Assembly: GCA_938006335.1 (NCBI GenBank)
Contig: CALLMF010000035.1
Location: 62,001 to 126,000 of the forward strand
Direction of reading: 5' to 3'
Source of the DNA: an uncultured Granulosicoccaceae bacterium
Lineage (GTDB): Bacteria; Pseudomonadota; Gammaproteobacteria; Granulosicoccales; Granulosicoccaceae
DNA length: 64,000 nt
The translations under genes were made by a program, and so were the position numbers. The notes beneath the pieces were generated by a model. It did no database searches. It saw nothing but the letters and a program-made list of their open reading frames with translations, and was not told where the DNA came from. Of the stretch, positions 22,329 through 41,020 are shown one piece after another (positions within the stretch are counted from its first letter, which is position 1; every line of letters starts with the position of its first letter).

Positions 22329-22910
22329 TCATTTTTTGACTACTGAAACCGCATCCACGGCGCCCGCTCGGGCCTGCCGCGCGCGGTAGCGCCGGCGGTA
22401 GATCAGCTCGCCAACCACTAACGCCCCTATACCGGCATACACCAGCGCGCCGTTCCAGAGTGCCCACAGGGCGCGATCGCCGTGAATGACGGTATACGCC
22501 GAGACGACTGATACCACGGCAAAAAAGGCAGCCCACACAGCGGTAAGTCCACGCAAGTAGGCCCGATTATGTTCGCCCACCTCCATCTTGCGAAGCGTTG
22601 CGAAGCGCTCGATCATGGGCGTGCCGTGCACCAGACTCCCAGCAAATGCCAGCATAAACCCCGTGTTGAGCACGACCGGATACACCGTCAGCCACCGATC
22701 GTCCTGTTGAAAATGCCAGACGAGGCCGACAAGACCGACCATCAGTACCCCCGCCCACTTGTAGCGAACGGCCACAGGCATAAGCATCAAGCGCAGCAGC
22801 AGCACCAAGGCCAGTACTGCCGCGAGCACATGCAGTCCCACCGCGTCCGCGCCGAAAAACACCGCAAGCGGGTAGAGGCCAGCGCCGATGCCAAGAATCA
22901 GATTAGGCAT
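22329..22910 (-). CDS. COG4648-like integral membrane protein of the polyene cluster
   Basis: A 193-residue protein with five to six membrane segments (starting at LILGIGAGLYPLAVFF) and a basic C-terminus. It resembles the COG4648 membrane proteins that accompany aryl-polyene clusters, where their function is unassigned. Its start overlaps the phosphopantetheinyl transferase gene by 8 nt, tying it to the cluster. A role in assembly or export of the lipid product is a guess. Confidence 0.68.
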   Translation of the reverse strand: MPNLILGIGAGLYPLAVFFGADAVGLHVLAAVLALVLLLRLMLMPVAVRYKWAGVLMVGLVGLVWHFQQDDRWLTVYPVVLNTGFMLAFAGSLVHGTPMIERFATLRKMEVGEHNRAYLRGLTAVWAAFFAVVSVVSAYTVIHGDRALWALWNGALVYAGIGALVVGELIYRRRYRARQARAGAVDAVSVVKK

Positions 22911-23640
22911 GAGGTGCGTTGTTCATGCGCGTCACGCATATCGATAGTCGGTAGCCGTCAACTTCGGCAGGCTCGTGCAGCGTCGACTCGCGATCGGCAA
23001 CACCGTCAACAGATACACGCTCAGGAGTCTCTGCGATACCGACATGAACGCGTGACATGCCAAAACCAAGACCCAGACCTTGCGCCTTCAACCAGGCTTC
23101 CTTGCGTGTCCACGCACGGACAAATGCAGAAGCGCGCTCGTCCATCTCCATGCTGGCGAGCTCGCGCTGCTCTTGCTCGTTGAACACAAGACGTGAGAGT
23201 TCGAGATGATCGCGTTGTGGCTTGACCGCCTCGATATCGATACCGATCCGATGCCTGACATGCTTGCATTTCGACAGAGCAATCACTCCGGTGTCGCCAC
23301 TGTGCGAAACATTGAAGGCCAGGGAACCACAATACGGTTTTCCATAAGAACCGTAGCTGAATTCCAGCGAAGCAGGGTCAGTGTCGAGTACGCTCGCCAG
23401 ACGCAATCGCAGGGATGCACGTACACATTTCCACAGCCGTGCCTGCGCCTGCTCGCGCAGCCGGCGAGCTCGGTGACGTTCGGCATCCGACAGCATCGAG
23501 TCGATGAAGGCAGCGTGTTTCTCGTGCATCGCTGCCGAGACCAACCAGACCTCGATATCGGCATCGCTCGCGACCGGCAAGAACGATCCGCCAACGCACT
23601 GCAATCCGACATCACCAGAACTGGAGAGCATCTCGTCCAC
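22903..23640 (-). CDS. 4'-phosphopantetheinyl transferase (Sfp type)
   Basis: A 245-residue Sfp/Gsp-type transferase that converts apo acyl carrier proteins to the holo form. It has YGKPYC, FNVSHSGD, the metal-binding GIDIEAV and WTRKEAWLKAQGLGLG, all in order. The gene begins with GTG at 23640 (ATG at 23631 is possible). It lies at the edge of the polyene cluster, so the two free ACPs and the ACP domain of the FAAL fusion are its likely substrates. Confidence 0.92.
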   Translation of the reverse strand: MDEMLSSSGDVGLQCVGGSFLPVASDADIEVWLVSAAMHEKHAAFIDSMLSDAERHRARRLREQAQARLWKCVRASLRLRLASVLDTDPASLEFSYGSYGKPYCGSLAFNVSHSGDTGVIALSKCKHVRHRIGIDIEAVKPQRDHLELSRLVFNEQEQRELASMEMDERASAFVRAWTRKEAWLKAQGLGLGFGMSRVHVGIAETPERVSVDGVADRESTLHEPAEVDGYRLSICVTRMNNAPHA

Positions 23641-23688
23641 CTGCTCGGCCGTACCTTGAACACACGCGTTGTCGTTGCCGGACAGCGG

Positions 23689-24459
23689 TCAACATAATCC
23701 GCCGTTGACAGCGATCACCTGGCGGGTCACATAGCTCGCTTCCGGCGACAACAGAAAGCGGACGACGGACGCCACTTCTTCTGCCTCGCCAATTCTTCCG
23801 GCGGGAATAGCGGCCAACATGGCCTCGGAGGAAACATCCGCCGTCATGTCGGTATCGATGAGGCCTGGCGCGACGCAATTGACAGTGATGGACCGAGAGG
23901 CAAGCTCTACCGCCAGCGCCTTGGACGCGCCGATGATGCCGGCCTTGGCGGCACTGTAGTTCACCTGGCCCCGATTGCCGATGAGCCCCGAGACCGAAGC
24001 CAAGGTGACGATACGGCGCGGCTGACGGGTTTTTATCAACGGCATGACCAGAGGGTGCAACACGTTGTAGAAACCGCCGAGATTGGTGTCGACCACGCGA
24101 TCCCAATCATCCCCCGACAGCATCGGAAAAATGCCATCGGCGGTCACGCCCGCGTTGCACACCACGCCCCAGGGCGTGCCGTGGTCCTTGAGTTCGGCGT
24201 CCAGCGCCTCGCGGGCAGCGTCGCGATCCGACACGTCAAATCCGATCGCATGAGCGGTACCACCGGCGGCCTGGATATCCTCAACGACCTGATCAGCCGC
24301 AGCCACGTTGGCGTGATAGTGCACCGTGACCGCGTAGCCGTTTCTGGCAAGATCGAGTGCAATCGCACGACCGATGCCGCGACTGGACCCGGTGACCAGG
24401 ACGCGATGATGGCCGGTCTCGTTGGTGCTCTGGGTGGTCCTGAAAGTGGGTACACTCAT
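23689..24459 (-). CDS. 3-oxoacyl-ACP reductase (FabG-like, ApeQ counterpart)
   Basis: A short-chain dehydrogenase of about 256 residues from ATG 24459. It has the NADPH motif GSSRGIGRA, NAG, catalytic Ser (LASVSGLIG) and YSAAK, and ends ...VIAVNGGLC as FabG proteins do. It reduces the 3-keto group during polyene chain extension. GTG at 24480 would add seven residues. It is divergent from the ketosynthase at 24550, with about 90 bases between for promoters. Confidence 0.92.
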   Translation of the reverse strand: MSVPTFRTTQSTNETGHHRVLVTGSSRGIGRAIALDLARNGYAVTVHYHANVAAADQVVEDIQAAGGTAHAIGFDVSDRDAAREALDAELKDHGTPWGVVCNAGVTADGIFPMLSGDDWDRVVDTNLGGFYNVLHPLVMPLIKTRQPRRIVTLASVSGLIGNRGQVNYSAAKAGIIGASKALAVELASRSITVNCVAPGLIDTDMTADVSSEAMLAAIPAGRIGEAEEVASVVRFLLSPEASYVTRQVIAVNGGLC

Positions 24460-24549
24460 TGATAATCGGGAATCCGCCACGCGGTCGTTACGTAAGGTAT
24501 ACGGACAGCTTAGCGCTTCCTGCCACCGCTACCTCTCACTCTCTGACTG

Positions 24550-25764
24550 ATGCACCCACGTTCGATACCCACCGGTCGCAGGACTCCGCGCGCGGGCGTG
24601 CACGCGTGGACGTCCGCGAGCGCCTGTGCGCTGGGCAATGCGGGCTTGCATACTGCCCTGCGCGAGGGAGTCAGCGGGCTGACTCGAAACGACTATCCGG
24701 ATTCCGGACTGGATACCTGGATTGGTCGTGTACGGGCGTGCGACAACCATCAGGTAGAGGAAAGCCTGCAGCATCTTGACAGCCGCAACAACCGACTCGC
24801 CGACCTTGGACTGGGCCTCGACCGCTTCGATGAGCGTGTCGCCGAGGTCGTGGACCGCCTGGGCGCGCACCGAATCGGCTTGATCATGGGCACCAGCACC
24901 GCGTCTATCGGTCGCACCGAGTCTGCCTATGCGGCACTCGACAACGATTCGTTTGCAGCCGTATTTCAGCAGCCTGAAGTACACAATCCGCACAGCGTCG
25001 GACACTACGTGGCGACACGGCTGGGTATTCAAGGGCCATCGATGAGCATCAGTACCGCCTGCTCATCGAGCGGGAAGGTGTTCGCATCTGCCGCTCGCTG
25101 GTTGCAGCTCGGCCTGGTGGATGCAGTGGTCGTCGGCGGTGTGGATTCGCTGTGCCTGAGCATCCTGCACGGCTTTGCCTCGCTGGAGCTTGTGTCCACC
25201 CGACCCTGCCGGCCCTACGATGCCGCTCGCGATGGTATCAATATCGGTGAGGCCGCAGCCTTCGCTCTATTGCTGCCTGAAGACACTCCAGGCATGGAGT
25301 TGGAGCTGAAAGGTTTCGGTGAAACCTCTGATGCCTGGCACATGGCACAACCTCATCCGCAAGGCCGGGGCGCGCGTGATGCCATGCGTGATGCGCTGCG
25401 TGGCGCTGGCGTGACAGCTGACGACATCGGCTACGTCAATTTGCACGGCACTGCCACCCCCGCCAACGATGCGACCGAAGCCAAGGCGCTGGCCGAGGTG
25501 TTTGTGGACCCGGTGCCAGCATCGTCCACCAAGGGCTGGACCGGCCACACCCTGGGCGCCGCCGGCATCGTGGGCGCTGTGACCGCGCTCGACGTGCTCA
25601 CGTCCGGCCATGTACCGCGCACATTGAATCTCGACACGCCGGACCCAACGCTCTCCTACCCGGTGCTCACAGCATCCACGACCACCACACGCGACCATGT
25701 GATGTGTAATTCCTTTGGGTTTGGCGGCAACAACTGTTCGCTGGTTTTCGGGAGGTGCACATGA
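24550..25764 (+). CDS. Beta-ketoacyl-ACP synthase (ApeO-like)
   Basis: A 404-residue condensing enzyme of the FabF/KAS II fold with the complete Cys-His-His triad: Cys171 (ISTACSSSG), NLHGTAT and TGHTLGAAG, and the terminal NSFGFGGNN loop. The next gene starts within its stop codon and encodes a KS-like partner without the triad. The pair looks like the ketosynthase/chain-length-factor heterodimer of aryl-polyene synthases, which adds malonyl units to an aryl starter. Confidence 0.92.
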   Translation: MHPRSIPTGRRTPRAGVHAWTSASACALGNAGLHTALREGVSGLTRNDYPDSGLDTWIGRVRACDNHQVEESLQHLDSRNNRLADLGLGLDRFDERVAEVVDRLGAHRIGLIMGTSTASIGRTESAYAALDNDSFAAVFQQPEVHNPHSVGHYVATRLGIQGPSMSISTACSSSGKVFASAARWLQLGLVDAVVVGGVDSLCLSILHGFASLELVSTRPCRPYDAARDGINIGEAAAFALLLPEDTPGMELELKGFGETSDAWHMAQPHPQGRGARDAMRDALRGAGVTADDIGYVNLHGTATPANDATEAKALAEVFVDPVPASSTKGWTGHTLGAAGIVGAVTALDVLTSGHVPRTLNLDTPDPTLSYPVLTASTTTTRDHVMCNSFGFGGNNCSLVFGRCT

Positions 25765-26519
25765 TGCGCCTTGCGGTGACCGGCGCAGGGGCCTGGGGAC
25801 GCGGAGTGCGTTGCGCAGCTGACATCGGTCGCGAGGTCGCACACGAAGACGACGTCCCGGTGCCACGTCCCGCCGTGATCCCCAAACGGGAACTACGGCG
25901 CAGCCCAAACGCGAGCCGCCTCGCCGTGGAAGTCGCGGTACAGGCCTGCGAAGCGGCCGGGCAGGACACGGCCAACATTCGCTCGGTGTTCACCTCATCG
26001 CTGGGTGATTCCGCGATAACGGATTACATGTGCCGGACACTCGCCGGTGACGACAAGCTGTTGTCCCCGACCCGGTTTCACAATAGCGTGCACAACGCGG
26101 CAGCCGGATGCTGGTCGATTGCATGCAACAACCCTCTGCAAACCAACTTTGTCGCAAGCTTTGGCAACAGTGCGGGCCTGGCTTTTCTTGAAGCGATGAC
26201 GCTGGTCGCCTCCGATGCTCGACCGACCTTGTTCGTCGCGGTCGACGTCCCGGTACCGGGACCCTTGGCGAGCGTGCACGGCAACGGAACGACCGCGGCC
26301 CTCGCGATGGTGATTGATCGTGAGAATGAAGACGCCGCGCCATGCACCGTTACACTCGATGCGTCAGCCGTCTCCACCCCCGAGGACCACGCTATTTCCA
26401 CCCGCACGCTGTGGCCGATGGCTGGAGCGCAGGCGCGCGGGGAGGCATGGCATGGCGAGCTGAAACTCGGTACTCGATCAAGAATGATGATTGATCTCGA
26501 AACACGGAGAGCGCAATAG
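25761..26519 (+). CDS. Ketosynthase-like chain-length factor (ApeC-like)
   Basis: About 252 residues, the length of the short 'Ketoacyl-synt_2' family rather than a full ketosynthase. Where the active cysteine would lie there is FHNSVHNAAAGCWSIA, and the downstream catalytic histidines are absent, so it cannot condense by itself. ATG at 25761 overlaps the preceding TGA and follows GGGAGG by a few bases. In known aryl-polyene systems the equivalent protein pairs with the ketosynthase and sets chain length. Confidence 0.8.
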   Translation: MMRLAVTGAGAWGRGVRCAADIGREVAHEDDVPVPRPAVIPKRELRRSPNASRLAVEVAVQACEAAGQDTANIRSVFTSSLGDSAITDYMCRTLAGDDKLLSPTRFHNSVHNAAAGCWSIACNNPLQTNFVASFGNSAGLAFLEAMTLVASDARPTLFVAVDVPVPGPLASVHGNGTTAALAMVIDRENEDAAPCTVTLDASAVSTPEDHAISTRTLWPMAGAQARGEAWHGELKLGTRSRMMIDLETRRAQ

Positions 26520-26520
26520 G

Positions 26521-28113
26521 ATGAGCAGCGCCATGCCAGCCGGGGGGGCAACGGCCGACGTCGCCATTCTGGGCGGTGGGCTTGCCGGGCTGACACTCGC
26601 CAGACAATTGCGTAGGGCCACACCTGCACTATCGATCACGATCGTGGATGCCGGGCGCCACCCCGTGGCCGAGGCCGCTTTCAAGGTCGGTGAGTCGTCC
26701 GTGGAGATCGGCGCAGACTATCTGGCGCGAACGCTTGGCTTGCGCGAGCATCTTGACACTGCCCACCTCAAGAAATTCGGACTGAGGTGTTTCTTTGGCG
26801 ATGGGCACGACGTCGCTCACGCTGACGAACTTGGAGCCAGCCATCCCTTGCCCGTATCGGCCTGGCAAATGGATCGAGGCAGGCTGGAGAATCATCTGCA
26901 CCAATGCGCGATGAATGACGGTATCCGCGTGATTGATGAGGCGTCAATACGGGCGGTGGACTTCGCGACGGATGGTCAGGCGACGATTCGCTACCGTCGC
27001 GGGACAGGGAGAGAGTGCGTGCAAGCGCGGAGAGTCGTAGACGCGAGTGGCCGGCGCGGACTACTCCGCAAACGTCTGCGCCTGAGTAAACCGGTGGCGC
27101 ACAACGGAAACGCGGCATGGTTCCGTGTCGACAAGACCATCAAGGTTGACGACTGGAGTGGCGACCAGGATTGGCAGCAACGGGTACCCGGTCACAAGCG
27201 CTGGCTGAGCACCAACCACTTGATGGGTAATGGCTATTGGGTGTGGCTGATTCCGCTTGCATCCGGGGCGACCAGCATAGGTATCGTTGCCGACGCTCAA
27301 AAGCACCCCTTGAGCACCATGCATAGCCATGATCGTGCACTGGACTGGCTGGCGCAGCATCAACCGCAGTGTCGTGAGGCGGTAGGTGCCGAAGCCATCG
27401 ACTTCCATCGCTTTCGCGGTTATTCGTACGCCAGCGAGCGGTTGTTTTCCGGGCGCCGCGATGCCGGCGAATGGGCGCTGACCGGAGAAGCAGGGCAGTT
27501 TGTTGATCCGTTCTATTCACCCGGGCTCGACTTCATCGCCTACGGCAACACGTTTGTCACTGACCTGCTGATGCGCGATCTGGCAGGGGAGGACACACGC
27601 GCACGACGGCTCACGCACGAGCACGGCTTCGCCGCCATTCATCAGAGTACCGAGGCCTTGTACGAAGGCCAGTATGCCGGCTTCGGTAACTTCAGACTCA
27701 TGACCCTGAAGACGATCTGGGATTACGCCTTCTACTGGTGTGTACTCGGTTTTCTTCATACCAACGATGCGCTGACCGACACGGACTTGCTCGGCGTTCA
27801 TGCCAGTAGTCTTGCTCGGGCACGCGCCATGAACGTGGAAGTTCAGCATGCCTTCCGTACCGCAGCAGAACGCTGTCCGACCATCCCGCCCACAGGAGCG
27901 TTTGCCGACCACGGCCGCATGCCGTTACTCCGCGAACTCAACGGACGCCTGGCGTCTCCGTGCAAGGGATCACTTGGCGAGGCGCTTCAAGCTTCCCTTG
28001 CCGACCTCGATGCCATTGGCCGCACGCTGATACCGCTGTTCGGAAAAGGCTTCGATGCAAGTGATACACCTGCGTGGTTGTATGAAGACCCTGAACGGGT
28101 GCTGAGTGCCTGA
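26521..28113 (+). CDS. Flavin-dependent halogenase-like protein 1
   Basis: A 530-residue FAD protein. It has the dinucleotide motif LGGGLAGLTLAR (17-28), FKVGESS (54-60), a lysine pair at 84-85 (HLKKFG) in the position of the catalytic lysine of phenolic halogenases, WVWLIP at 240-245 (the WxWxIP motif) and GEAGQFVDPFYSPG. These features favour halogenase over plain monooxygenase. A long C-terminal extension (about 400-530) may bind a carrier-protein substrate. ATG at 26521 follows the chain-length-factor stop by one base. Halogenation of the aryl head group, as in brominated xanthomonadins, is the inferred role. Confidence 0.78.
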   Translation: MSSAMPAGGATADVAILGGGLAGLTLARQLRRATPALSITIVDAGRHPVAEAAFKVGESSVEIGADYLARTLGLREHLDTAHLKKFGLRCFFGDGHDVAHADELGASHPLPVSAWQMDRGRLENHLHQCAMNDGIRVIDEASIRAVDFATDGQATIRYRRGTGRECVQARRVVDASGRRGLLRKRLRLSKPVAHNGNAAWFRVDKTIKVDDWSGDQDWQQRVPGHKRWLSTNHLMGNGYWVWLIPLASGATSIGIVADAQKHPLSTMHSHDRALDWLAQHQPQCREAVGAEAIDFHRFRGYSYASERLFSGRRDAGEWALTGEAGQFVDPFYSPGLDFIAYGNTFVTDLLMRDLAGEDTRARRLTHEHGFAAIHQSTEALYEGQYAGFGNFRLMTLKTIWDYAFYWCVLGFLHTNDALTDTDLLGVHASSLARARAMNVEVQHAFRTAAERCPTIPPTGAFADHGRMPLLRELNGRLASPCKGSLGEALQASLADLDAIGRTLIPLFGKGFDASDTPAWLYEDPERVLSA

Positions 28114-28116: not shown

Positions 28117-29526
28117 TCAATGAACGACGTTGTCGATCCCTTGAGCCAACGCTGCACCGCCTTGGTGTTGATTGAGCATGGCAAGCAAATCAGTTCGTCG
28201 CAGCTTGCTGCTGCCTTGACGCGGCAAGGCATCCACAAACACGAGAGGACGCGGCAGAAATGCCGGGTCGAGAACACGCCGCAATGCGGCGAGCAGCTGA
28301 CGACGATCAAGGGTAGGGGCGACGACGAAGGCCGCCAGCCTGCCATTGGATGGCTGAAACGCCACGCCATCGACGACGCCAGGCACAGCGAGCAAGCGTC
28401 GATTGACATCGGCGAGCGAGCCGCGTTTACCCGCGATGTTGATCAGATCTTCGCGGCGACCACACAGGCGGAAACAGCCGGATCCGAGCAGCTCGATATT
28501 GTCCTGAAGCTCCGCAGGTTCGGACAGGTGGTCTGCCACGATGCGTGCTTCGGCACTGCCTGACTCGATGTTGGTGGCTTCGGTCAGGTTCAAACCGTCA
28601 AACACCTGCCAATGCTCCTCTCTGGATGTTCGTCTGCAAGCGATGGACCCGACTTCACTGCAGCCGTAGATTTCGGTGAGTTCGCCGCCACAGATCGACT
28701 CGATCTGATGTGCCGTGTCGCCATCGAGCGGCGCGGTCGCACTGAATAGTCGCTGCACGTCGGGTAATGAAGGCGCTGACGCAAGCAGTGCTCGCAGATG
28801 CGCCGGCGTCGTGACAAGCGCACGCGGTGCGGGCATGTTTTCCAGCGCATCGGACACGTCCGCGGGAAACAGGGGTTGCCCAACGACCACCGTGACCGGT
28901 GCTCGCATCGGCATCAGCACACTGAGCTCAAGGCCGTACATATGCTGCGGAGGCACCGTGGCAAGCAAGGTCAGTGCATCTGTGGAGGCGCCGAACAAGG
29001 CGCGACGATTGATGGCTGTTCCATCGATCAGCATGCCCCAGGTTTTTTCGTTGGCACGGGGTAGACCCGTGGATCCGGACGTGAACGAGATGGCAGCGAC
29101 TGCGTTGCGGTGAGCAGACGGTCTACCGGCGCCGAAGTCCGTGGCACTTCCATGGCCTGGCAGATCGGTGATCCGTGAGGCCACACGTGCATCAACGGCG
29201 GGATAACCGGAAATCGGGGGGATGCCGTCAGTGTCGTAGACAAGTCCGATACTGCTGTAGCGCGCGGCGAGCTCCTGAAGCGTGTCCGGCTGCCGGTTGG
29301 GAGGCAACAGATTGACCTTGCCACTTGCAATGATTGCGCAGAAGGAAATCAGGAAGTGGTGTCTGTCCTCGCACAGATTCATCACGAACCGGGTATCTGG
29401 CAGTGCACGCGCCAGTGTCAGGACGCGGTGTTCGACCTCGGCGACGGTTGCTACCTGACCGGCGTCGATCAGGATCGGATCGTCAAGAGCCCGGTCAAAA
29501 AGAGCGACACCGTCCACAGGCGACAT
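28117..29526 (-). CDS. AMP-dependent ligase for starter acid loading (ApeH-like)
   Basis: About 469 residues of the ANL adenylating superfamily. The phosphate-binding loop SFTSGSTGLPRANEKTW, the A5-like YGCSEVGSIA and the late GRREDLINIAGKRG are visible. The C-terminal domain is short, with PRQGSSKLRR in the place of the usual catalytic lysine motif. It would activate an aryl acid and load it on an ACP. It is transcribed from the same direction as the ACP gene 21 bases upstream, and converges with the halogenase-like gene. Confidence 0.87.
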   Translation of the reverse strand: MSPVDGVALFDRALDDPILIDAGQVATVAEVEHRVLTLARALPDTRFVMNLCEDRHHFLISFCAIIASGKVNLLPPNRQPDTLQELAARYSSIGLVYDTDGIPPISGYPAVDARVASRITDLPGHGSATDFGAGRPSAHRNAVAAISFTSGSTGLPRANEKTWGMLIDGTAINRRALFGASTDALTLLATVPPQHMYGLELSVLMPMRAPVTVVVGQPLFPADVSDALENMPAPRALVTTPAHLRALLASAPSLPDVQRLFSATAPLDGDTAHQIESICGGELTEIYGCSEVGSIACRRTSREEHWQVFDGLNLTEATNIESGSAEARIVADHLSEPAELQDNIELLGSGCFRLCGRREDLINIAGKRGSLADVNRRLLAVPGVVDGVAFQPSNGRLAAFVVAPTLDRRQLLAALRRVLDPAFLPRPLVFVDALPRQGSSKLRRTDLLAMLNQHQGGAALAQGIDNVVH

Positions 29527-29547
29527 CACGGTAGAGACCCGGATGAT

Positions 29548-29856
29548 CTAGCTGTTGCCTGCGGCCATCACCGTAGGCGATGCAGCCTCGGCCTGCCGAT
29601 TGTCCGCGACGAAGGCGCTCAAGCTGCGCAAGGTGGTAAACGCCTCGCGGGTCGATGGGTCCTCCGCTTTCAGTTGCACGCCATAGCGTTGCGACACGGC
29701 GAGCGCGAGCTCGAGAGCATCGACAGAATCCAGTGCGAGCTCGCCATCAAACAGACCTTCCTCGGAATCGATGTCAGCCGGGGCCACATCCTCCAGATTC
29801 AGGGTCTCGACAAGTAGCTCGGCAACTTCCGACTCTAGCGGGCTTTGTGTACTCAC
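29548..29856 (-). CDS. Acyl carrier protein 1
   Basis: A 102-residue ACP from GTG 29856, chosen because AAGGA lies upstream and because the extra residues of longer in-frame readings are basic and unlike an ACP. The phosphopantetheine serine is Ser44 (LALDSVDALEL). An Ala/Pro-rich tail follows the four-helix core. It probably carries the starter or growing chain and forms an operon with the AMP ligase. Confidence 0.87.
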   Translation of the reverse strand: MSTQSPLESEVAELLVETLNLEDVAPADIDSEEGLFDGELALDSVDALELALAVSQRYGVQLKAEDPSTREAFTTLRSLSAFVADNRQAEAASPTVMAAGNS

Positions 29857-34145: not shown

Positions 34146-35514
34146 ACGCCATTCAACAGACCGTGTATCCACCTCTCGGACCGTCGCGATCGTCGGCGCA
34201 GGCCCCTGCGGAAGTGCGCTCGCCATTCGGCTGCGTCAACGTGATGTGCCGGTCGTGTTGATTGACAGCGACAAGCGTCCGCCACTGCTCGTTGGCGAGT
34301 CGTTGATTCCCGCCGCCATACCCCACCTCGATGCCCTCGGTGTACTTGATGACATCAAGCGCATCGGCGTGCACAAACCGGGCGCCAGCTTGCTGCACAC
34401 GCGTGGCGAGCGGGTGGACTTTCAGTTCCGTGATTTTGGCAAGCATGCTCCAGACTACGCCTTGAACGTTCCGCGGCCTGCGTTCGATGAGGTTCTCACG
34501 CGACGTGCGTGCGCACTCGGCGTGAGGCGCGTGCGCACGCGCGCCCGATTGCAGCGAGGCGTCGAGCGTGAGCTCGAACTCGATGAAGCCACGCTGGAGG
34601 TCGCGGGGCTGAGCTCACAGCCGGGCTTGATTGTCGACGCGACCGGCAGAGCGCGGGCAGCCTCCCGCACGCTCGGTCTGTCGACCCAGCGCGGCGGCAG
34701 GGATGACGTTGCGTGTTTTGCGCACTTCAGTGGCGCACGTTGCCCGGAACTGAGCGATGGGCGCATCCTGATCTCGGTGCTCGAACGCGGTTGGTCGTGG
34801 TGCATCCCACTGCCCGGACGGGTGTCGGTCGGCGTGGTCATACCCCGGGCGGAGCTTGCCAGTGCGGGCGGCAAGGCCGAGACCTTGCTCGTCAACCGCA
34901 TTGCCGCGGAACCGATACTCCGGGAACGGCTCAAGGGCGCCAGTCGAGTCACCGATGTCATGCGCTATGAGCATTACCAGCTGGTCGGCGAACGCGCCAC
35001 AGGGCGCGGTTGGGCGGCAGTGGGTGATGCCTTCGGGTTCGTGGATCCGATGCTCTCACCGGGCGTGTTCATGGCACTGGAAAGTGCCAGCCTGCTGGCA
35101 CCGCGCATCCGTGCCTCCGCCGGTACGCGCGGCGTGCAAGTCATCGATACCGCAGGCTATGAAGCGCGTCTGCGCTCGTGGTTTTCAAGCTGGAGCGACG
35201 TGATCGATACGTTCTACGACGGACGCATGCTGGCACTTCAGAAGGCAGCCCGCACGCGTGCGGTCGATGCCGGCCCTGTCTCCGTTCACCGCGTCGCTGA
35301 GGCCTTTACCCGGCGCGCCATTGCCCAATTGGTGTCCGGAGCAAATACCCGATCGCGAGTCTCTCGCGGTGTGTTGGCCCACAGTTGTCAGCATCTTCTG
35401 GAAGGCGCCGGCGTCGGTGAACGTGCCATCGACTTTGCCGTCAAGGGTCAGAGCGCGCCCTTCAAGGAAATCAAGTGGGTTGGGAACGGCGCCACGCCCG
35501 TTCCGTTCGGCTGA
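34138..35514 (+). CDS. Flavin-dependent halogenase-like protein 2
   Basis: A 458-residue FAD protein. VGAGPCGSALA is at 19-29, GESLIP near 53-58, Lys80 in HKPGAS at the place of the catalytic lysine of phenol/pyrrole halogenases, and WSWCIP at 219-224 (WxWxIP). GDAFGFVDPMLSPG is the second FAD segment. ATG at 34138 overlaps the exporter by 8 nt. It is clearly related to, but distinct from, the flavoprotein at 26521-28113. Its last 44 bases overlap the oppositely oriented cupin gene. Confidence 0.8.
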   Translation: MAERHSTDRVSTSRTVAIVGAGPCGSALAIRLRQRDVPVVLIDSDKRPPLLVGESLIPAAIPHLDALGVLDDIKRIGVHKPGASLLHTRGERVDFQFRDFGKHAPDYALNVPRPAFDEVLTRRACALGVRRVRTRARLQRGVERELELDEATLEVAGLSSQPGLIVDATGRARAASRTLGLSTQRGGRDDVACFAHFSGARCPELSDGRILISVLERGWSWCIPLPGRVSVGVVIPRAELASAGGKAETLLVNRIAAEPILRERLKGASRVTDVMRYEHYQLVGERATGRGWAAVGDAFGFVDPMLSPGVFMALESASLLAPRIRASAGTRGVQVIDTAGYEARLRSWFSSWSDVIDTFYDGRMLALQKAARTRAVDAGPVSVHRVAEAFTRRAIAQLVSGANTRSRVSRGVLAHSCQHLLEGAGVGERAIDFAVKGQSAPFKEIKWVGNGATPVPFG

Positions 35515-36433
35515 TTGCCAGCGCCTCGTTGCGCGCGTTCCATCGCTCACCGAGGAATCGCCGGCCCAGGCTGTCGATGATCCGGGTTCCGAATATGTTG
35601 CGTGCGATTCTCGCCACGTTCGCCGGATGCTTCCCCCAGGCACGCAGCGAAATGGAAAAACCGATGTCGTCATACACGACGAAATGCCACCAACCCGAAG
35701 GGATGTAGAGCACATCGCCATGCTCGAGCGTGGCGAGCTGGCCGTCCAGACCCGCCAGGGCCGGGAAGCGCTGCAAGTCCGGCTCGGCAAAATCGACATC
35801 GAACAGGCTGGAGAACGAGTAGGGCACGCGGTACATGAATCGCGTTTGCTCGGGAGGAATCAAGAGCACGCGCTTGCGCCCGCCAAAGTGACACAACAAG
35901 TTCTGCGCAAGGTCGATGTCGAAGTGCATCTGCACGCGCGCACCGCGCCCGCCGACAAACAGCACAGGCAGTCGCTTGAACAGTTTGAGGCCAACGTCCG
36001 GCCAGCGAATATCGTCGGCGAGCTCCGGTGCGTTGGCCAACAGGTGGTAGAAGAACATGCGCAGATCCTTCTCACCGTTTTCAAGCCGATCGAGATACTC
36101 ACCGAAGGTCAGGATGGTCGCGGCGGCATGTTGGTGTTGGCGGTCGCGAGCGGGCTGGCTGTCGTAGACCGGCACCTCGCGATCACCGGCCACCTTCTTG
36201 AGATACTCGGTCGACCACTGATACGCCGGCCAGTCTCGAGTGAGTTCGGTGAATACCACGGGACGCGAGCTCGCTACGTGGTCGCGACGAAAAACGTCTG
36301 CTGGGAGCGTACCGACGCGCGGCACCGGAGTCCCTGCCAGGCTGCGTAGACCGGGTAGATCGTCGTATTCGCTACCTCGGTCGCTGGCGCTAGCCTCACG
36401 ACACGTGGCCTCGGGCGTTGACGCCTCAGGCAC
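35471..36433 (-). CDS. JmjC/cupin_8-type Fe(II)/2-oxoglutarate oxygenase-like protein
   Basis: A 320-residue protein with a cupin-like JmjC fold. The iron site is seen as His170-x-Asp172 (QMHFDID) and His250 (PSGWWHFV). FFYHLL and RKRVLLIPPEQ match the strands around it. Relatives hydroxylate proteins or small molecules. It is the last gene of the seven-gene minus-strand operon and overlaps the ketosynthase gene by 8 nt. It is not part of the aryl-polyene core I know, so it may hydroxylate the polyene head or a lipid. Confidence 0.8.
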   Translation of the reverse strand: MPEASTPEATCREASASDRGSEYDDLPGLRSLAGTPVPRVGTLPADVFRRDHVASSRPVVFTELTRDWPAYQWSTEYLKKVAGDREVPVYDSQPARDRQHQHAAATILTFGEYLDRLENGEKDLRMFFYHLLANAPELADDIRWPDVGLKLFKRLPVLFVGGRGARVQMHFDIDLAQNLLCHFGGRKRVLLIPPEQTRFMYRVPYSFSSLFDVDFAEPDLQRFPALAGLDGQLATLEHGDVLYIPSGWWHFVVYDDIGFSISLRAWGKHPANVARIARNIFGTRIIDSLGRRFLGERWNARNEALAISRTERAWRRSQPT

Positions 36434-37652
36434 CGGTCAGTACCAGAGATGTATTGACGCCGCCGAATGCAAAGTTGTTACTGACCATGATGTCCGCCTG
36501 TTGATGACGACCGCTACCAGTCACAAAATCGAGACTGCCACAGGCCGGGTCTACAGTGGTGAGATTGAGGGTAGGTGCAAGCCATCCATCCCGGATCATG
36601 TTAAGACTGCACCATGCCTCGAAGGCACCGCAAGCCCCCAGCGTGTGCCCGGTATGGCCCTTGAGCGACATGACCGGGGTGTTCTGGCCAAACACGGCCT
36701 CGGTAGCGACCCCTTCGGCCACATCCCCAAACTCGGTCGACGTGGCGTGAGCATTCACCGCGCCGGCATCGCTCGCGTTAATTCCAGCCACGGCCAGTGC
36801 TTTTTCCATGACCACCTGAACGGTTTCCGGACGCGGGCGGACGACATGCGCGCCGTCGCTGTTGGTGGCAAAACCGATGATCTCGCCGAGAATGTCCGCC
36901 CCGCGGGCCTCCGCGTGCTCAAGAGACTCGAGGATCAGCGTGCAGGCGCCTTCGCCGAGCACCAGGCCGTCACGACCTTGGTCGAATGGCCGCGACGCCG
37001 CGGACGGGTCGTCGTTGCGCCGCGACGCGGCGAGCATCGTGTCGAATGTTGCCGCCTGCGTGGGGCATAGTTCTTCTGCACCGCCGGCGATCATCACGGT
37101 CTGGCGACCGTCCCGTATGGCTTCGAACGCATAGCCGATGCCCTGACTGCCCGCCGTGCACGCCGTACTGGTCGTGATCATGCGTCCGGTAATGCCAAAG
37201 CGGATACCAATATTCACCGCGGCCGTGTGACTCATCATTCGCAGGTACGTCGTGGTGTTCATGCGTTCTGCTGAACCGCGTTCGAGCAACGCGAAGAATT
37301 CCATGGCGGCGGCACTGCTGCCAGTGGCAGATCCAAACGCAATACCGGTGTCCCCGGAGCTCAACTGCGGGTCGTTGATCAGACCCGCGTCCTCCAGGGC
37401 CTGTTCGGTCGCAAATACCGCGAACTCGGCCACGCGACCCATGCTGCGCCGGCGCCGGCGCGAGTAGCTGGCCGGCAAGGCAAAGCCGTCTATCGGTGCT
37501 GCCACGCGGGTCTTCATGGTCTCGTAGCGCTCCCACTCCGGCATGTAACGCGCACCCGACACGCCATGTTCCAGCGCATGTCGTACGCCCGTCCATTCAC
37601 CACCCAGCGCGCTGACGACACCGGCGCCGGTTACTACTACTCGGGTACTCAC
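36426..37652 (-). CDS. Beta-ketoacyl-ACP synthase 2 (ApeR-like, FabF fold)
   Basis: A 408-residue condensing enzyme from GTG 37652, whose GTGA overlaps the dehydratase stop. Cys165 (TTSTACTAG), NAHATST and GHTGHTLGACG give the full Cys-His-His triad, and NNFAFGGVN closes the family pattern. It is separate from the KS/chain-length-factor pair and would carry out the first or later condensations as a homodimer. Confidence 0.92.
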   Translation of the reverse strand: MSTRVVVTGAGVVSALGGEWTGVRHALEHGVSGARYMPEWERYETMKTRVAAPIDGFALPASYSRRRRRSMGRVAEFAVFATEQALEDAGLINDPQLSSGDTGIAFGSATGSSAAAMEFFALLERGSAERMNTTTYLRMMSHTAAVNIGIRFGITGRMITTSTACTAGSQGIGYAFEAIRDGRQTVMIAGGAEELCPTQAATFDTMLAASRRNDDPSAASRPFDQGRDGLVLGEGACTLILESLEHAEARGADILGEIIGFATNSDGAHVVRPRPETVQVVMEKALAVAGINASDAGAVNAHATSTEFGDVAEGVATEAVFGQNTPVMSLKGHTGHTLGACGAFEAWCSLNMIRDGWLAPTLNLTTVDPACGSLDFVTGSGRHQQADIMVSNNFAFGGVNTSLVLTGA

Positions 37653-38152
37653 GATACAGCTGGCCTTGCCGTCGACGTGGCGGTGGAACCTTGATCCGGA
37701 TCGCCGCGCCATACGCTCAGAGAAGCGACAACGAGGGTGTCACCCAGGGCGTTGCTGACCGTGCCGTTGAAGGTGGCCAGACTGGCACCGGCCGTGCCCG
37801 CTTGACTGGCTGAAACAATCAGTCGATCGCCGTCGATGAACCACGGACAGGTGATATCCATGTTTCGACTGGCCAGCAGGAAACCCTCGCTACTGGATGC
37901 ATCGCTTGCAGATCCCCTCAGCTCGGATGCGGCGTACACGCCGATCAGCGCGGCAGTCTGGCCGATGTACTCCAACGCGACCCAGGCCGGCACGCCATGG
38001 CCATGGACATGAAAGGTCGACATTGCATCGATGGCGACTTCCGTCACTGCCGAGTGCGCGTTCAACTCACGCACTCCGCTCAGTAGTGACATGCTTGCCT
38101 TGTGCGGCAACACATCAATCCAATGCGACAGATCTGTTTCGGCGTCAGTCAA
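37649..38152 (-). CDS. Hotdog-fold 3-hydroxyacyl-ACP dehydratase (ApeP-like)
   Basis: About 167 residues from TTG 38152, which follows GGGGAA and sits in the last codons of the preceding acyltransferase gene. Longer in-frame readings extend into that gene and look like non-coding frame. The sequence begins WIDVLPHKASMSLL and contains GVPAWVALEYIGQTAA and EGFLLASRNMD, the pattern of ApeP/FabA-like dehydratases in polyene clusters. It would act with the second dehydratase at 39909-40295 to introduce the conjugated double bonds. Confidence 0.8.
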   Translation of the reverse strand: MTDAETDLSHWIDVLPHKASMSLLSGVRELNAHSAVTEVAIDAMSTFHVHGHGVPAWVALEYIGQTAALIGVYAASELRGSASDASSSEGFLLASRNMDITCPWFIDGDRLIVSASQAGTAGASLATFNGTVSNALGDTLVVASLSVWRGDPDQGSTATSTARPAVS

Positions 38153-39122
38153 GAGTTGCTGTTCCCCAGAACGGGTAGAAATTGAACCACTGAAACGGTG
38201 CGCGCGCGGCCGCAGCTTCCAGCGCAAGGGCAAATTGAGCCGCATACCGGGTGAGCGCTTCGTCGCGGCCCTTTCGTGGTAGCTCGACCTTCTCGGAAAA
38301 TTCCTGAAGGTCGACGAACACCTGCTGTCCCTCACGCCAGGCGAACATCAGCTTGACGGGGCAGGCGAGGGCGCGCGCAAGCAGATACGGGCCTATTGGC
38401 GCGCGCGCATCGCGTCCCATGAATCGTACGACGGCGGTGCGCCGCTCGCCGCTCAGGGGTATGCGATCGCCAGCGATGAACAACCACTCGCCAGCGTCGA
38501 TGCGAGACTTGAGTTCAAGGATTCGCCCGACGTCGAGTTCATCCACCTGAAACACATTGAGCCGCGAATCTGGACTGTAGTGCGACATGGCGGCGACAAA
38601 ATTGGCGGAATGCCGATCGTGAACCAGTACATTCACGGTCCGGGCATGGGTGGCCTGCAGAAAACCGCGGCAGTACTCCAGATTGCCGAAATGCGAGCCA
38701 ATGACCAGTTGTCCGCGCGGGTCCGCAAGTGTCTGCCTGACCAGCGCCTCGTCGATCAGCGTGAAATCCGACTCGCCCGGCGTCGCAGTCCACGCCAGGC
38801 CCTTGTCCAGTACCGCCTCGCCAAACGACTGGAAGTGCCTGATGGTATGCGACCAGCCAGGCTCTGTGCCGGGTTCAAGCGATGGCCAGCGCTCCGGATA
38901 ACATCGCGCATGCGTTCGCAGAAAGTCCATCGAGGCACGCCGCTGCAGCGGACGGGTGCACGCGTACCACACGCCGACAAGCCACAGGATTCCATGGAAC
39001 ACGCGCCGTCCGAACAACCGATACAGGCGGTACAACAGGCGGATACCCAGCACCGTGCCCGATTCACGAATCGAGGACCAGTGTGGCGCAGGGGCGTCAG
39101 CAGTTATCGGCGATTCGGACAT
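38145..39122 (-). CDS. LpxL/HtrB-like acyltransferase (ApeJ acyltransferase part)
   Basis: About 325 residues of the lysophospholipid/lipid A acyltransferase family. A hydrophobic N-terminus (VFHGILWLVGVWYA) precedes SHFGNLEYCRG (the H-x-x-x-x-E/D site), GDRIPLSG and a C-terminal FQWFNFYPFW. The ATG at 39122 lies 17 bases from the glycosyltransferase stop; GTG at 39152 would overlap that gene. In known aryl-polyene loci a glycosyltransferase and this acyltransferase can be fused in one protein; here they are two genes. It may acylate the glycolipid carrying the polyene. Confidence 0.82.
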   Translation of the reverse strand: MSESPITADAPAPHWSSIRESGTVLGIRLLYRLYRLFGRRVFHGILWLVGVWYACTRPLQRRASMDFLRTHARCYPERWPSLEPGTEPGWSHTIRHFQSFGEAVLDKGLAWTATPGESDFTLIDEALVRQTLADPRGQLVIGSHFGNLEYCRGFLQATHARTVNVLVHDRHSANFVAAMSHYSPDSRLNVFQVDELDVGRILELKSRIDAGEWLFIAGDRIPLSGERRTAVVRFMGRDARAPIGPYLLARALACPVKLMFAWREGQQVFVDLQEFSEKVELPRKGRDEALTRYAAQFALALEAAAARAPFQWFNFYPFWGTATLD

Positions 39123-39138
39123 CCCCCACAGTTTACCG

Positions 39139-39912
39139 TCAGACCGCACCACGACGTCCAGACAGTCGCCTCATGAGCAAACCGGGGAGCCGGGGTACAA
39201 GGCCCGCGAGCAGCCGCACATGCAGGAGGACCAGCTGACGATTGTCGCTGATGTAGTGGAAATGACTGGAGCCGTCCTCCGGGTAGCGGATGGCTGTGGC
39301 TACAAATCGCACCGGAACGTCCAGCCAGCGCGCCTTGACGAGTACGTCGGTATCAAATCCCATGCGCGGCGCGATATGAAACTGATCACGCAGTTGATCC
39401 AGCACCTGCACCGGGTACACCCGATAACCACACAAACCATCCCGAATACCCCCACCGAGTGTCTCGATGGCGATCATGGCAGTGGTCAGCTTGCGCCCGT
39501 GAACACGAGCGGCCGGCGCATCGGCACCGAACACCGGCAGGCCCGAGACGATCGCGCCAGGCTCGCGACGCGATGCGTCCAGCAATGTCGGGAGGTCAGC
39601 CACATCGTGCTGGCCATCGGCGTCGATTTGCACGACGTGGGTAAAGCCGGCCGCAGCGGCCGACGCGGCCCCGGTAAACACCGCGGCACCCTTGCCGCGA
39701 TTGTGCGAATGCGTGAGATAAGTGACGTCGGCCCCCTCTTGTCGAGCCCGTTCGCACAAGCTGCGGCATTGTTCGCTTACCTCGTCACGACTGCCGTCGT
39801 CGACGACGACCATGGGCGTGCCGGTCGCTGACAAGGCCGGCAGGAAGCGCTCGAAAGCCTCGATGTGTTCATAGTGAGGTACAACAAGACAGTAGCCGGG
39901 CAGGGAGGTCAT
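39139..39912 (-). CDS. Family 2 glycosyltransferase
   Basis: A 257-residue GT-A glycosyltransferase. CLVVPHYEH opens the nucleotide-binding fold, VVDDGS and QIDADGQHD provide the donor and DxD-like metal sites, and GRKLT and GLCGYRVYP follow. ATG at 39912 overlaps the dehydratase stop as ATGA. It lacks a long membrane domain, so the sugar is probably added at the cytoplasmic face before acylation by the next gene product. Confidence 0.88.
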   Translation of the reverse strand: MTSLPGYCLVVPHYEHIEAFERFLPALSATGTPMVVVDDGSRDEVSEQCRSLCERARQEGADVTYLTHSHNRGKGAAVFTGAASAAAAGFTHVVQIDADGQHDVADLPTLLDASRREPGAIVSGLPVFGADAPAARVHGRKLTTAMIAIETLGGGIRDGLCGYRVYPVQVLDQLRDQFHIAPRMGFDTDVLVKARWLDVPVRFVATAIRYPEDGSSHFHYISDNRQLVLLHVRLLAGLVPRLPGLLMRRLSGRRGAV

Positions 39913-40295
39913 TGCGTAAACAGCAGGCTGCCGCTCGCGCACACCACATCGTCACGTCGGTACTCGAAGCGCACGCTCGAGGTCTTCAGTTGCAGTGTCA
40001 GCTGCACAGGCACTTCAGGCGTTATCGGTCGAACGAACTTCAGCCGCCCGGTGCCGCGATACGCCGAGTCGAACGTGAAAACAGCCTGGCTTGCAATACC
40101 TGCCAGATGAACCTGTGCGACACCCGGCAACAGCGGCCTGCCCGGAAAATGCCCGTCAAACCACGGCAGCGTCGCGGGAAATTGCAAGAACAGCACGACC
40201 GATCTCGGTGCCGGCTCGGCATCACGCTCCATCTTGAACAACTCGGGACGCTCGGCCGGACTGAGGCGCGCGAAGGGCTGGATCTGCGGGCTCAT
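39909..40295 (-). CDS. FabA/FabZ-like hotdog dehydratase (ApeI-like)
   Basis: A 128-residue single hotdog domain. WFDGHFPGRPLLPGVAQVH contains the histidine and the LPGV/AQ helix typical of FabZ/ApeI dehydratases, and RLKFVRPITP forms the next strand pair. Thioesterases share this fold, but the GHFPG-x-P-x-LPG motif favours a dehydratase. It is linked by 4-nt overlaps to the genes on both sides. Confidence 0.85.
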   Translation of the reverse strand: MSPQIQPFARLSPAERPELFKMERDAEPAPRSVVLFLQFPATLPWFDGHFPGRPLLPGVAQVHLAGIASQAVFTFDSAYRGTGRLKFVRPITPEVPVQLTLQLKTSSVRFEYRRDDVVCASGSLLFTQ

Positions 40296-41020
40296 CCTCT
40301 GAGGCCATCACGTGCGAGCTGTTCAAGCTGCAGCATGCGCCCGCGTGCGTCCGTGCACACGTCCTCGAGCGCGTCACCCGCTAGGCCGCGGGCCACGGTA
40401 ATGGGTTCGCCGACGACCACCTTTACGCGCGCAAACGGCAGCGGCAACAGGGTCCGGTCCCAGCTGGAGAGTCGCACCGCAGGGCGTGCTGCGTAGGCGA
40501 CCGGCACGAGCGGAGCACCAGACAAGCTCGCGAGCATGGCAACACCGGACTTGAACTGTTCTGCCGGACCGCGCGGACCGTCTGGCGTGACGATCGGCGA
40601 CACGCCTTCGTTGCGAATCGCCTCATAGATCTCACGCAGGGCTTGTGCCCCACCGCGTGTTGCGGATCCACGGATCACGCGCAAGTTCAGATCCGAAAAC
40701 ATGCGCGCGGCGGCATCCCCATCGCGCGACGGGCTGATCAGATAACCGAGCTTGAGTCGGTTGGATTGTCGCTCGCGCAGCTCGAGCAGGGCGTGCACAC
40801 AGAAGATCTGCTGGCCGTGCCAGTAACAGGGAATGACGGGTTTTCCATCGGCAGCAAGCGCATCGAGGGCGGGCGAGCCGTCGATGTCGACGCGGCAGGT
40901 CTTCCACAGCAGATTGATCACGCCCCGCGCCAGTCGGGGCAACACACGGTCGCCGAGACGGCGTACGCGGCCGCGAGGACGAGATGTTGGTACTCCTGGT
41001 TTCGCTGGCATCGTTTCCAT
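40292..41020 (-). CDS. DUF374-type lysophospholipid acyltransferase
   Basis: About 242 residues from ATG 41020 (ATG at 41011 also fits). The longer readings to 41206 would run through the N-terminus of the divergent P450 and are low-complexity. CYWHGQQIF, LISPSRDGD, RGSATRGG and TPDGPRGP are the motifs of the DUF374 branch of acyltransferases. It is the first gene of the coupled minus-strand operon 41020-35471, and the cluster's third acyltransferase. It may acylate a lipid acceptor such as a glycolipid or Kdo-like head. Confidence 0.82.
   Translation of the reverse strand: METMPAKPGVPTSRPRGRVRRLGDRVLPRLARGVINLLWKTCRVDIDGSPALDALAADGKPVIPCYWHGQQIFCVHALLELRERQSNRLKLGYLISPSRDGDAAARMFSDLNLRVIRGSATRGGAQALREIYEAIRNEGVSPIVTPDGPRGPAEQFKSGVAMLASLSGAPLVPVAYAARPAVRLSSWDRTLLPLPFARVKVVVGEPITVARGLAGDALEDVCTDARGRMLQLEQLARDGLRG

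What the first reader, a model, noticed from the sequence alone, without database searches (positions are those of the whole stretch)
22329..41020. Aryl-polyene/xanthomonadin-type cluster with an unusual set of tailoring enzymes
The gene set (PPTase, KR, KS+CLF, second KS, two hotdog dehydratases, two ACPs, AMP ligase, LolA-like, MMPL exporter, acyltransferases, GT2) matches aryl-polyene clusters. It differs by two halogenase-like flavoproteins and a JmjC/cupin oxygenase, while the ammonia-lyase/chorismatase that would make the aryl starter is not seen. The arrangement suggests a halogenated, perhaps glycosylated polyene lipid of undescribed structure.
Basis: partly seen in the sequence, partly recalled or inferred. 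Interest (0 to 1): 0.8.

Follow-up and report, generated by a model that had tools for sequence, protein, structure and literature searches.

The report
Hybrid aryl-polyene pigment gene cluster
This bacterium carries a gene cluster that very probably makes a yellow, membrane-bound pigment of a known class, with two unusual flavin enzymes and an iron oxygenase that may decorate it in a way not yet described.

Summary
Window 22329-41206 encodes a complete type II aryl-polyene pathway: ApeO-like KS plus short CLF, ApeR-like second KS, KR, ApeI/ApeP-like dehydratases, two ACPs, AMP ligase, PPTase, GT2, acyltransferases, LolA-like protein, MMPL exporter, COG4648. Two halogenase-like flavoproteins and a JmjC/Cupin_8 oxygenase are added.

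(1) The 'missing' starter enzyme exists: a chorismatase-family gene lies on another contig (in the genus only here and in the nearest relative, 2 of 27), and three related clusters carry a chorismatase inside. (2) A halogenase-like flavoprotein is ordinary in xanthomonadin-type clusters, and the Azoarcus pigment from such a cluster is proposed to be non-brominated, so halogenation cannot be read off. (3) Unusual: the gene content mixes xanthomonadin-like (KS-CLF, ligase, chorismatase, flavoprotein) and ape-like parts (ApeR, second ACP, ApeP, AT), and both flavoproteins form clades of their own. Hal1 follows KS-CLF directly in 7 of 9 genomes. Hal2 and the cupin share a cluster in 4 of 5.

Known kind of system, new variant. 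Product structure, halogen included, is unproven.

The parts
22329..22910 (-). COG4648/ApeG-like membrane protein
   Evidence: 36% over 107 aa to the protein at L001:34575-35156 of the E. coli ape locus; matched in G017, G026, G397, G398, G302; Pfam IspA just under cut-off
22903..23640 (-). 4'-phosphopantetheinyl transferase
   Evidence: PF01648 69.6 bits; none annotated in the E. coli ape locus
23689..24480 (-). 3-ketoacyl-ACP reductase, ApeQ/FabG2-like
   Evidence: TIGR01831 over cut-off; 57% to E. coli ape FabG2
24550..25764 (+). KS1, ApeO-like elongating ketosynthase
   Evidence: PRK09185 over cut-off; best PDB matches 7f28 and 6qsp; tree
25755..26519 (+). short chain-length factor, ApeC-like
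   Evidence: PF13723 91.4 bits; directly after KS1; 25% to E. coli ApeC
26491..28113 (+). Hal1: flavin-dependent halogenase-like protein, own clade; ATG at 26521 is a likely start
   Evidence: PF04820; group of 8 rows at 100; directly after KS1-CLF in 7 of 9 genomes
28117..29529 (-). AMP ligase for an aryl acid (ApeH/ArcT-like)
   Evidence: PF00501 over cut-off; TIGR02372 coumarate ligase below cut-off; 37-42% to xanthomonadin-like, 30% to E. coli ape
29548..29967 (-). ACP1
   Evidence: PRK09184 over cut-off; DS motif
29893..30873 (+). lysophospholipid-type acyltransferase, ApeD-like (start uncertain)
   Evidence: PF01553; 33% to E. coli ape
30873..31139 (+). ACP2
   Evidence: PRK05350 over cut-off; DS motif
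31136..31822 (+). LolA-like periplasmic carrier
   Evidence: weak LolA2_flexi and lolA matches; position before MMPL kept in relatives
31701..34145 (+). MMPL/RND exporter, ApeM-like (start uncertain)
   Evidence: PF03176 over cut-off; 25% to E. coli ape MMPL; starts
34084..35514 (+). Hal2: second halogenase-like flavoprotein, own clade; ATG at 34138 is a likely start
   Evidence: PF04820 62.9 bits; group of 5 rows at 100
35471..36433 (-). Cupin_8/JmjC oxygenase
   Evidence: PF13621 130.9 bits; JMJD5 and FIH best PDB matches; HFD and GWWH motifs
36426..37712 (-). KS2, ApeR-like ketosynthase
   Evidence: PRK09116 over cut-off; best PDB matches 4ewg and 7f27; tree
37649..38335 (-). ApeP-like hotdog dehydratase (start uncertain)
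   Evidence: PF22817 over cut-off
38145..39152 (-). LpxL-like acyltransferase (counterpart of the second half of ApeJ)
   Evidence: PF03279 over cut-off; matches the C-terminal part of the E. coli GT2/acyltransferase
39139..39942 (-). GT2 glycosyltransferase (counterpart of the first half of ApeJ)
   Evidence: PF00535; 42% to the E. coli GT2 part
39909..40295 (-). ApeI-like hotdog dehydratase
   Evidence: PF22818 over cut-off
40292..41206 (-). DUF374 acyltransferase, overlaps ApeI by 4 bp
   Evidence: PF04028; matched in G017 only
41061..42449 (+). cytochrome P450, possible accessory gene
   Evidence: PF00067; 76% in G017, not matched in the other stretches
42494..44542 (+). fatty acyl-AMP ligase with C-terminal ACP, possible accessory gene
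   Evidence: PF00501 and PF00550; 63% in G017 only
19034..21648 (-). histidine kinase-receiver and LuxR-type response regulator beside the cluster
   Evidence: kept next to the cluster in G017; Azoarcus arcW/arcX are HK/RR

Best explanation
The locus makes an aryl-polyene lipid. Inferred route: a chorismatase encoded elsewhere in the genome supplies 3- or 4-hydroxybenzoate; the AMP ligase loads it on ACP1; KS1-CLF (ApeO/ApeC-like), helped by ApeR-like KS2, extends it with malonyl units; KR and the two hotdog dehydratases turn each unit into a double bond; GT2 and the acyltransferases attach the polyene acid to a sugar-lipid anchor; MMPL and LolA carry it to the outer membrane as a photoprotective or antioxidant pigment. 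Hal1, whose gene overlaps the KS1-CLF genes and is probably on their transcript, most likely acts as a flavin-dependent halogenase or oxygenase on the ACP-bound aryl or polyene chain; Hal2 with the JmjC oxygenase forms a second, optional tailoring step. The pathway class is well supported by sequence; the reactions of Hal1, Hal2 and the cupin are inferred.
For: KS1 groups with ApeO-type KSs and KS2 with ApeR-type, apart from the genome's own FabF at 100/100; best PDB matches are the ApeO and ApeR structures and relatives. ApeR Tyr135, reported important for stacking of the aryl group (PMC8358021, passages), aligns with Tyr156 here and is not Tyr in own FabF. Gene content agrees with E. coli ape (13 window genes matched), and with five related clusters. 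Chorismatase-family gene in own genome with PDB match 5ag3; in-cluster chorismatases in G397, G398, G302. Active-site Lys and WxWxIP in 9 of 9 Hal1 and 5 of 5 Hal2 clade proteins. Hal1 directly behind KS1-CLF in 7 of 9 genomes.
Against: No product is known. WxWxIP and Lys are equally present in all 29 other flavoproteins compared, and arcuflavin is proposed non-brominated despite arcA, so halogenation does not follow. Own chorismatase is only 28-30% identical to the in-cluster ones; G026, which has the cluster with Hal1, and G003 (74% complete) have no chorismatase match. No thioesterase gene between ACP2 and LolA in the window or G017, unlike the five relatives scanned. The fold model of Hal1 was poor (pLDDT 48.6) and its matches do not separate halogenases from hydroxylases.
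Confidence: 0.72

Rival explanations
1. An aryl-polyene cluster whose product is not halogenated: Hal1 and Hal2 are flavin hydroxylases or oxidases (or serve another step), as the halogenase-like ArcA would be if arcuflavin truly lacks bromine.
For: Arcuflavin is proposed non-brominated although its cluster holds arcA. Hal2 scores higher with QhpG, a monooxygenase model (121 bits, cut-off 240), than with the CmlS halogenase model (83 bits, cut-off 900), both under cut-off. Fold matches of the poor Hal1 model do not separate halogenases from hydroxylases. Hal1 has E in place of the D of the GDA motif, and Hal1 and Hal2 have Y and L where 29 of 29 others have F before the conserved Ser.
Against: The active-site Lys and WxWxIP are fully kept in both clades; the best PDB matches by sequence are the halogenases PltA and ChlB4 for Hal1 (with 3nix, a 'flavoprotein/dehydrogenase', close behind) and 8zop and CndH for Hal2.
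Confidence: 0.4
2. The polyene is started from a fatty or other acid, not from hydroxybenzoate: the adjacent FAAL-ACP and P450 supply the starter, giving a non-aryl polyene lipid.
For: P450 and FAAL-ACP sit next to the cluster and are 76% and 63% identical in G017 at the same place; no ammonia-lyase or UbiC match in the genome.
Against: P450 and FAAL not matched in the other clusters of the same type, as far as the fetched stretches reach; chorismatase in the genome and in three sister clusters; the AMP ligase is closer to xanthomonadin-like than to ape-like ligases; the ApeR Tyr is kept.
Confidence: 0.1
3. KS1, KS2 and ACPs belong to ordinary fatty-acid synthesis, or the cluster is degenerate and makes no polyene.
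For: No product data; the organism is known here only as a draft genome.
Against: The KS tree separates both from own FabF; KS Cys and His motifs and ACP serines are intact; the 20 genes shared with G017 keep 41-81% identity.
Confidence: 0.04

Closest known systems
Escherichia coli CFT073 ape (aryl polyene) cluster, L001:23728-38749
   Same: ApeO/ApeC, ApeR, ApeQ, ApeI, ACP pair, AMP ligase, AT, GT2 and LpxL-like parts, MMPL, COG4648: 13 window genes match by tblastn; ApeP and LolA counterparts by profile only
   Different: Window has in-cluster PPTase, Hal1, Hal2, cupin, DUF374, P450, FAAL-ACP; counterparts of the methyltransferase ApeB, lipoprotein ApeA, thioesterase ApeK and DUF3261 ApeN were not seen among the genes scanned; order and strands differ
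Xanthomonadin-type clusters (Xanthomonas pig, Lysobacter, Azoarcus arcuflavin), known to me here from papers only
   Same: KS plus short CLF, KR, dehydratases, acyltransferase, exporter; in Azoarcus also chorismatase, AMP ligase, LolA, halogenase-like gene and HK/RR
   Different: Window also has ApeR-like KS2 and a second ACP; its chorismatase is unlinked; it has two flavoproteins and a cupin; product unknown. Xanthomonas, Lysobacter and Azoarcus sequences were not compared directly
Hal1-type clusters in genomes G017, G026, G397, G398, G302
   Same: KS1-CLF-Hal1 module and ApeR-like KS2; with the window their KS1 form one group at 97/97 and their KS2 at 100/99
   Different: Hal2 and cupin only in G397 and G302 of these (and on a G003 contig end); P450/FAAL/DUF374 matched only in G017; chorismatase in-cluster in G397, G398, G302; thioesterase in G026, G397, G398, G302
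Flavin-dependent halogenases PltA, ChlB4, Mpy16, Bmp2, CndH, CmlS, FasV
   Same: Fold family, active-site Lys, WxWxIP
   Different: 17-21% identity to Hal1 in structure-based alignment of a low-confidence model; Hal1 and Hal2 have clade-fixed residues around FVDPxxSxG

Membership tests
Aryl-polyene type II PKS clusters | ApeO-type KS with short CLF | tested here: met
Aryl-polyene type II PKS clusters | AMP ligase, ACPs, KR and hotdog dehydratase(s) for iterative polyene extension | tested here: met
   ApeI- and ApeP-like Pfam models over cut-off, two ACPs, FabG2, AMP-binding
Aryl-polyene type II PKS clusters | LolA-like carrier and MMPL exporter with acyltransferase/GT2 | tested here: met
   the LolA part has weak support
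Aryl-polyene type II PKS clusters | Polyene pigment product | not testable with these tools
   needs culture or heterologous expression
E. coli-type ape | Second, ApeR-type KS | tested here: met
E. coli-type ape | ApeK thioesterase and ApeB methyltransferase in the cluster (accessory: their deletion still gives APE carboxylic acids, PMC8253772 passages) | tested here: not met
   ACP2 and LolA genes overlap by 4 bp; no methyltransferase among the scanned genes
Xanthomonadin-type | XanB2-type chorismatase supplying 3-/4-HBA | tested here: inconclusive
   none in the cluster; one PF21168 gene unlinked in own genome, 28-30% to in-cluster relatives, PDB match 5ag3 with the Cys kept; activity untested
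Xanthomonadin-type | Single KS without ApeR (as in the Lysobacter gene list) | tested here: not met
   KS2 present
Xanthomonadin-type | Brominated aryl polyene | not testable with these tools
   needs LC-MS
Flavin-dependent halogenase | GxGxxG, active-site Lys, WxWxIP (meaning of the motifs recalled) | tested here: met
   equally met by all 29 other flavoproteins compared, so not discriminating
Flavin-dependent halogenase | Halogenation activity | not testable with these tools
   needs an enzyme assay
JmjC/Cupin_8 2-oxoglutarate oxygenase | Cupin_8 domain with HxD...H metal site (motif recalled) | tested here: met
Dialkylresorcinol hybrid (flexirubin, arcuflavin) | DarB in the genome | tested here: not met
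   no match over the NF053539 cut-off; best 33.4 bits against 550

The most novel reading that the evidence does not exclude
Hal1 is a new clade of flavin-dependent halogenase that works together with the KS-CLF of a hybrid ape/xanthomonadin synthase, halogenating the growing ACP-bound aryl polyene, and Hal2 with the JmjC oxygenase adds a second halogen or hydroxyl, so that the product is a multiply decorated polyene lipid unlike xanthomonadin, flexirubin or APE.
Probability: 0.25. Interest if true: 0.65.

Novelty: new variant of a known kind. Interest (0 to 1): 0.45.

Why it matters
It is an aryl-polyene cluster whose gene content joins the two described layouts, ape and xanthomonadin, and it recurs as a type in several gammaproteobacterial genomes of different families. 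It offers two halogenase-like clades with no characterised member in the set compared, one tied to KS-CLF. That makes an open question testable: whether the halogenase-like flavoproteins in these common pigment clusters halogenate at all, given that xanthomonadins are brominated and arcuflavin is proposed not to be.

Tried and rejected
Ammonia-lyase and UbiC as starter enzymes: no match in the genome. UbiC is matched in 0 of the 27 genus genomes (15 of 57 genomes in all), so its absence is nothing special here. Dialkylresorcinol hybrid: no DarB over cut-off. Motif test for halogenase activity: WxWxIP and Lys occur in all 43 flavoproteins of the final alignment (9 Hal1, 5 Hal2 clade, 29 other) and in the 5 PDB references, so it cannot decide. 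The second fold job was not used.

KS1 tree: whether the Hal1-type KS1 is sister to the xanthomonadin-like or the ape-like KS1 is not resolved (AU p 0.196 and 0.212), and G406, which has Hal1, falls with G411 and not with the other Hal1 clusters. The 'hybrid' statement rests on gene content and pairwise identity. Some stretches may not reach the whole cluster.

Inspection of other flavoproteins: of the 29 'other' rows I looked at 12 loci; 9 have KS, CLF, ligase or ACP genes nearby (G023, G059, G048, G087, G171, G308, G411, L003, L022), G183 only GT2 and AT matches, and G075 and the second G220 contig (both under 5 kb) show none. The other 17 rows were not inspected. Searches scored only a few candidates per genome, so counts may be low.

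Cupin link: cupin relatives of 50% identity or more (11 of 369 genomes) overlap with Hal2-family genomes (36 of 369) in 8 of 11, p 5e-7, and in 5 of 8, p 2e-4, without the three linked clusters. But in 7 of 7 unlinked cupin loci fetched (of 8; G170 not fetched), no biosynthetic gene of the cluster lies nearby, and the neighbours scanned are diverse and unrelated (10 proteins, 2 without a family). Relatedness was not controlled, so I give this no weight for mechanism. G220 has a Hal2-clade protein but no cupin match in the genome and no KS match on its 12.7 kb contig.

Rows dropped from the flavoprotein tree: three duplicates of the same genes and one short contig-end row; G397 Hal1 was missed by my extraction there, a first repair failed, and it was added.

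Literature, open-access library only: 'aryl polyene' + 'halogenase' + 'cluster' 11 papers; 'aryl polyene' + 'Granulosicoccus' 0; + 'cupin' 6, 5 listed, titles and abstract starts only; + 'tryptophan halogenase' 1, listing only; 'arylpolyene' + 'flavin-dependent halogenase' 0; 'Granulosicoccus' + 'pigment' 21, 10 listed, none read.

Full report
Where it is. The window is part of contig 35 of a draft genome of 3.8 Mb (93.75% complete). So the host is a Granulosicoccus-like gammaproteobacterium (that the genus is marine is recalled).

What is there. KS1 passes the PRK09185 model, KS2 PRK09116, ACP1 PRK09184, ACP2 PRK05350, KR TIGR01831; the hotdog proteins pass the Pfam models ApeP-like and ApeI-like. 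Thirteen window genes find a counterpart in the E. coli CFT073 ape locus (L001:23728-38749) by tblastn at E up to 1e-4: COG4648, KR, KS1, CLF, AMP ligase, ACP1, AT, ACP2, MMPL, KS2, LpxL-like AT, GT2 and ApeI. The E. coli GT2 and acyltransferase are one protein, two genes here.

Not fatty acid synthesis. In a maximum-likelihood tree of 31 KS proteins the KS1 group (18 rows) is split from KS2 and the genome's own FabF at 100/100, and KS2 forms one group with E. coli ApeR at 100/99. The best PDB matches are 7f28 and 6qsp for KS1, and 4ewg and 7f27 for KS2; PMC8358021 (passages) names 6QSP as Xenorhabdus ApeO-ApeC and 4EWG as an ApeR homologue, and mentions 7F27. That paper reports that the aryl group stacks between Tyr135 and Phe202 of ApeR; both align with Tyr156 and Phe223 here (position read off the alignment). 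The Tyr is not present in own FabF, the Phe is, so only the Tyr is informative.

Starter unit. The genome has no PF00221 match and no UbiC match, but one chorismatase-family gene, L026:6494-7399, on contig 10. Its best PDB match is 5ag3 (that this is Hyg5, a 3-HBA former, is recalled), and it keeps the Cys that differs between 5ag3 and 5a3k. Among 27 genomes of the genus (own included) only the window genome and G017 have such a gene, and both are among the four with a KS2 match at E up to 1e-90 (G000, G017, G023, G026): chance 0.017, with the caveat that the two are close relatives. Three clusters of the same type (G397, G398, G302) carry a chorismatase between ACP1 and AT. Against: G026 has the cluster but no chorismatase match, and own chorismatase is 28-30% identical to the in-cluster ones.

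The flavoproteins. A Hal2-family flavoprotein is found in 36 of 369 sampled gammaproteobacterial genomes (own included) at E up to 1e-35. Of 12 such loci outside the Hal2 clade that I inspected, 9 lie by KS, CLF, ligase or ACP genes. ArcA of Azoarcus was annotated as a halogenase, and Acetobacteraceae aryl-polyene clusters are reported with 'a probable halogenase' (PMC8776678, passages). So one such protein is ordinary. Hal1 is rarer: 8 of 369 genomes at E up to 1e-30 (own included), plus G026, 9 in all. In a tree of 47 rows Hal1 (8 rows) and Hal2 with its four closest relatives are two separate groups, each at SH-aLRT 100, apart from a group of 27 of the other 29 flavoproteins (98); the remaining two group with 3nix (quick method, long branches that meet). 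Hal1 lies directly downstream of KS1-CLF in 7 of 9 genomes (window, G017, G026, G397, G398, G302, G406), near it in G411, and on a 4.5 kb contig without them in G085. Hal2 and the cupin lie in the same cluster in the window, G003, G397 and G302: as neighbours between MMPL and KS2 in the window and G003, about 1 kb apart in G397 and about 6 kb apart in G302. G017 and G026 have neither there. Active-site Lys and WxWxIP are present in 9 of 9, 5 of 5 and 29 of 29. Clade-fixed changes sit in the FVDPxxSxG region: Phe in 29 of 29 others, Tyr in 9 of 9 Hal1, Leu in 5 of 5 Hal2; Hal1 also has GEA where 27 of 29 others have GDA. These point to altered active sites but not to a reaction.

Halogenation. 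Xanthomonadins are brominated (PMC3949708 and PMC6391268, passages), but the arcuflavin polyene is proposed to be a non-brominated aryl-heptaene although its cluster has arcA (PMC3949708, sections 18 and 22). Hence 'halogenated' remains a hypothesis, about even in my view for at least one of the two proteins.

A hybrid layout. By pairwise identity the window's KS1, CLF and AMP ligase are closer to five xanthomonadin-like clusters (47-57, 31-46, 37-42%) than to six ape-like ones (36-42, up to 33, 23-30%), while KS2, ACP2, AT and ApeP are matched in ape-like stretches (6, 3, 4 and 6 of 6) and in none of the five xanthomonadin-like ones; KR is 51-64% to ape-like and 47-48% to the three xanthomonadin-like ones with a match. 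Six genomes (window included) share this layout with Hal1, and their KS1 and KS2 are each one group (97/97; 100/99). The tree does not settle which side the KS1 came from, and my labels rest on gene content.

Differences from kin. Five related clusters (G026, G003, G397, G398, G302) have a 4HBT thioesterase between ACP2 and LolA; the window and G017 have no gene there. Of the stretches compared, only the window and G017 carry DUF374, P450, FAAL-ACP and PhyH beside the cluster, so these may or may not belong to the pathway. The HK and LuxR genes at 19034-21648 are kept in G017; HK/RR genes are also listed with the Azoarcus arc genes.

Verdict. A real, conserved, intact-looking aryl-polyene cluster with a hybrid gene content, two unusual flavoprotein clades and an optional JmjC oxygenase. 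New variant of a known kind; product unproven.

Noticed in passing
window 50537-54099: Sulfopyruvate decarboxylase alpha and beta subunits (both just over NCBIfam cut-offs), an FMN-dependent dehydrogenase and a hisD-like dehydrogenase in a row: looks like an organosulfonate pathway.
   Followed up: no
window 8939-10087 (-): Squalene/phytoene synthase family gene, about 12 kb from the pigment cluster.
   Followed up: no
window 4691-6151 (+): Protein with a RoxA-like cytochrome c domain, one gene away from a PLD-like protein at 2023-3525.
   Followed up: no
window 35471-36433 and 369 class genomes: Relatives of the JmjC/Cupin_8 protein co-occur with Hal2-family flavoproteins at genome level (8 of 11 genomes) although unlinked in the 7 other loci looked at; kinship not controlled.
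   Followed up: partly
window 44418-47054 (+): A GGDEF-EAL protein lies between FAAL and PhyH in the window; in G017 the gap between those two is too short for it.
   Followed up: no
L004-L021, L023-L025: 21 of the 24 loci found with KS2 are from spirochaetes, mostly Treponema; many of them also match KR, KS1, MMPL or GT2, so ape-like clusters seem common there.
   Followed up: no
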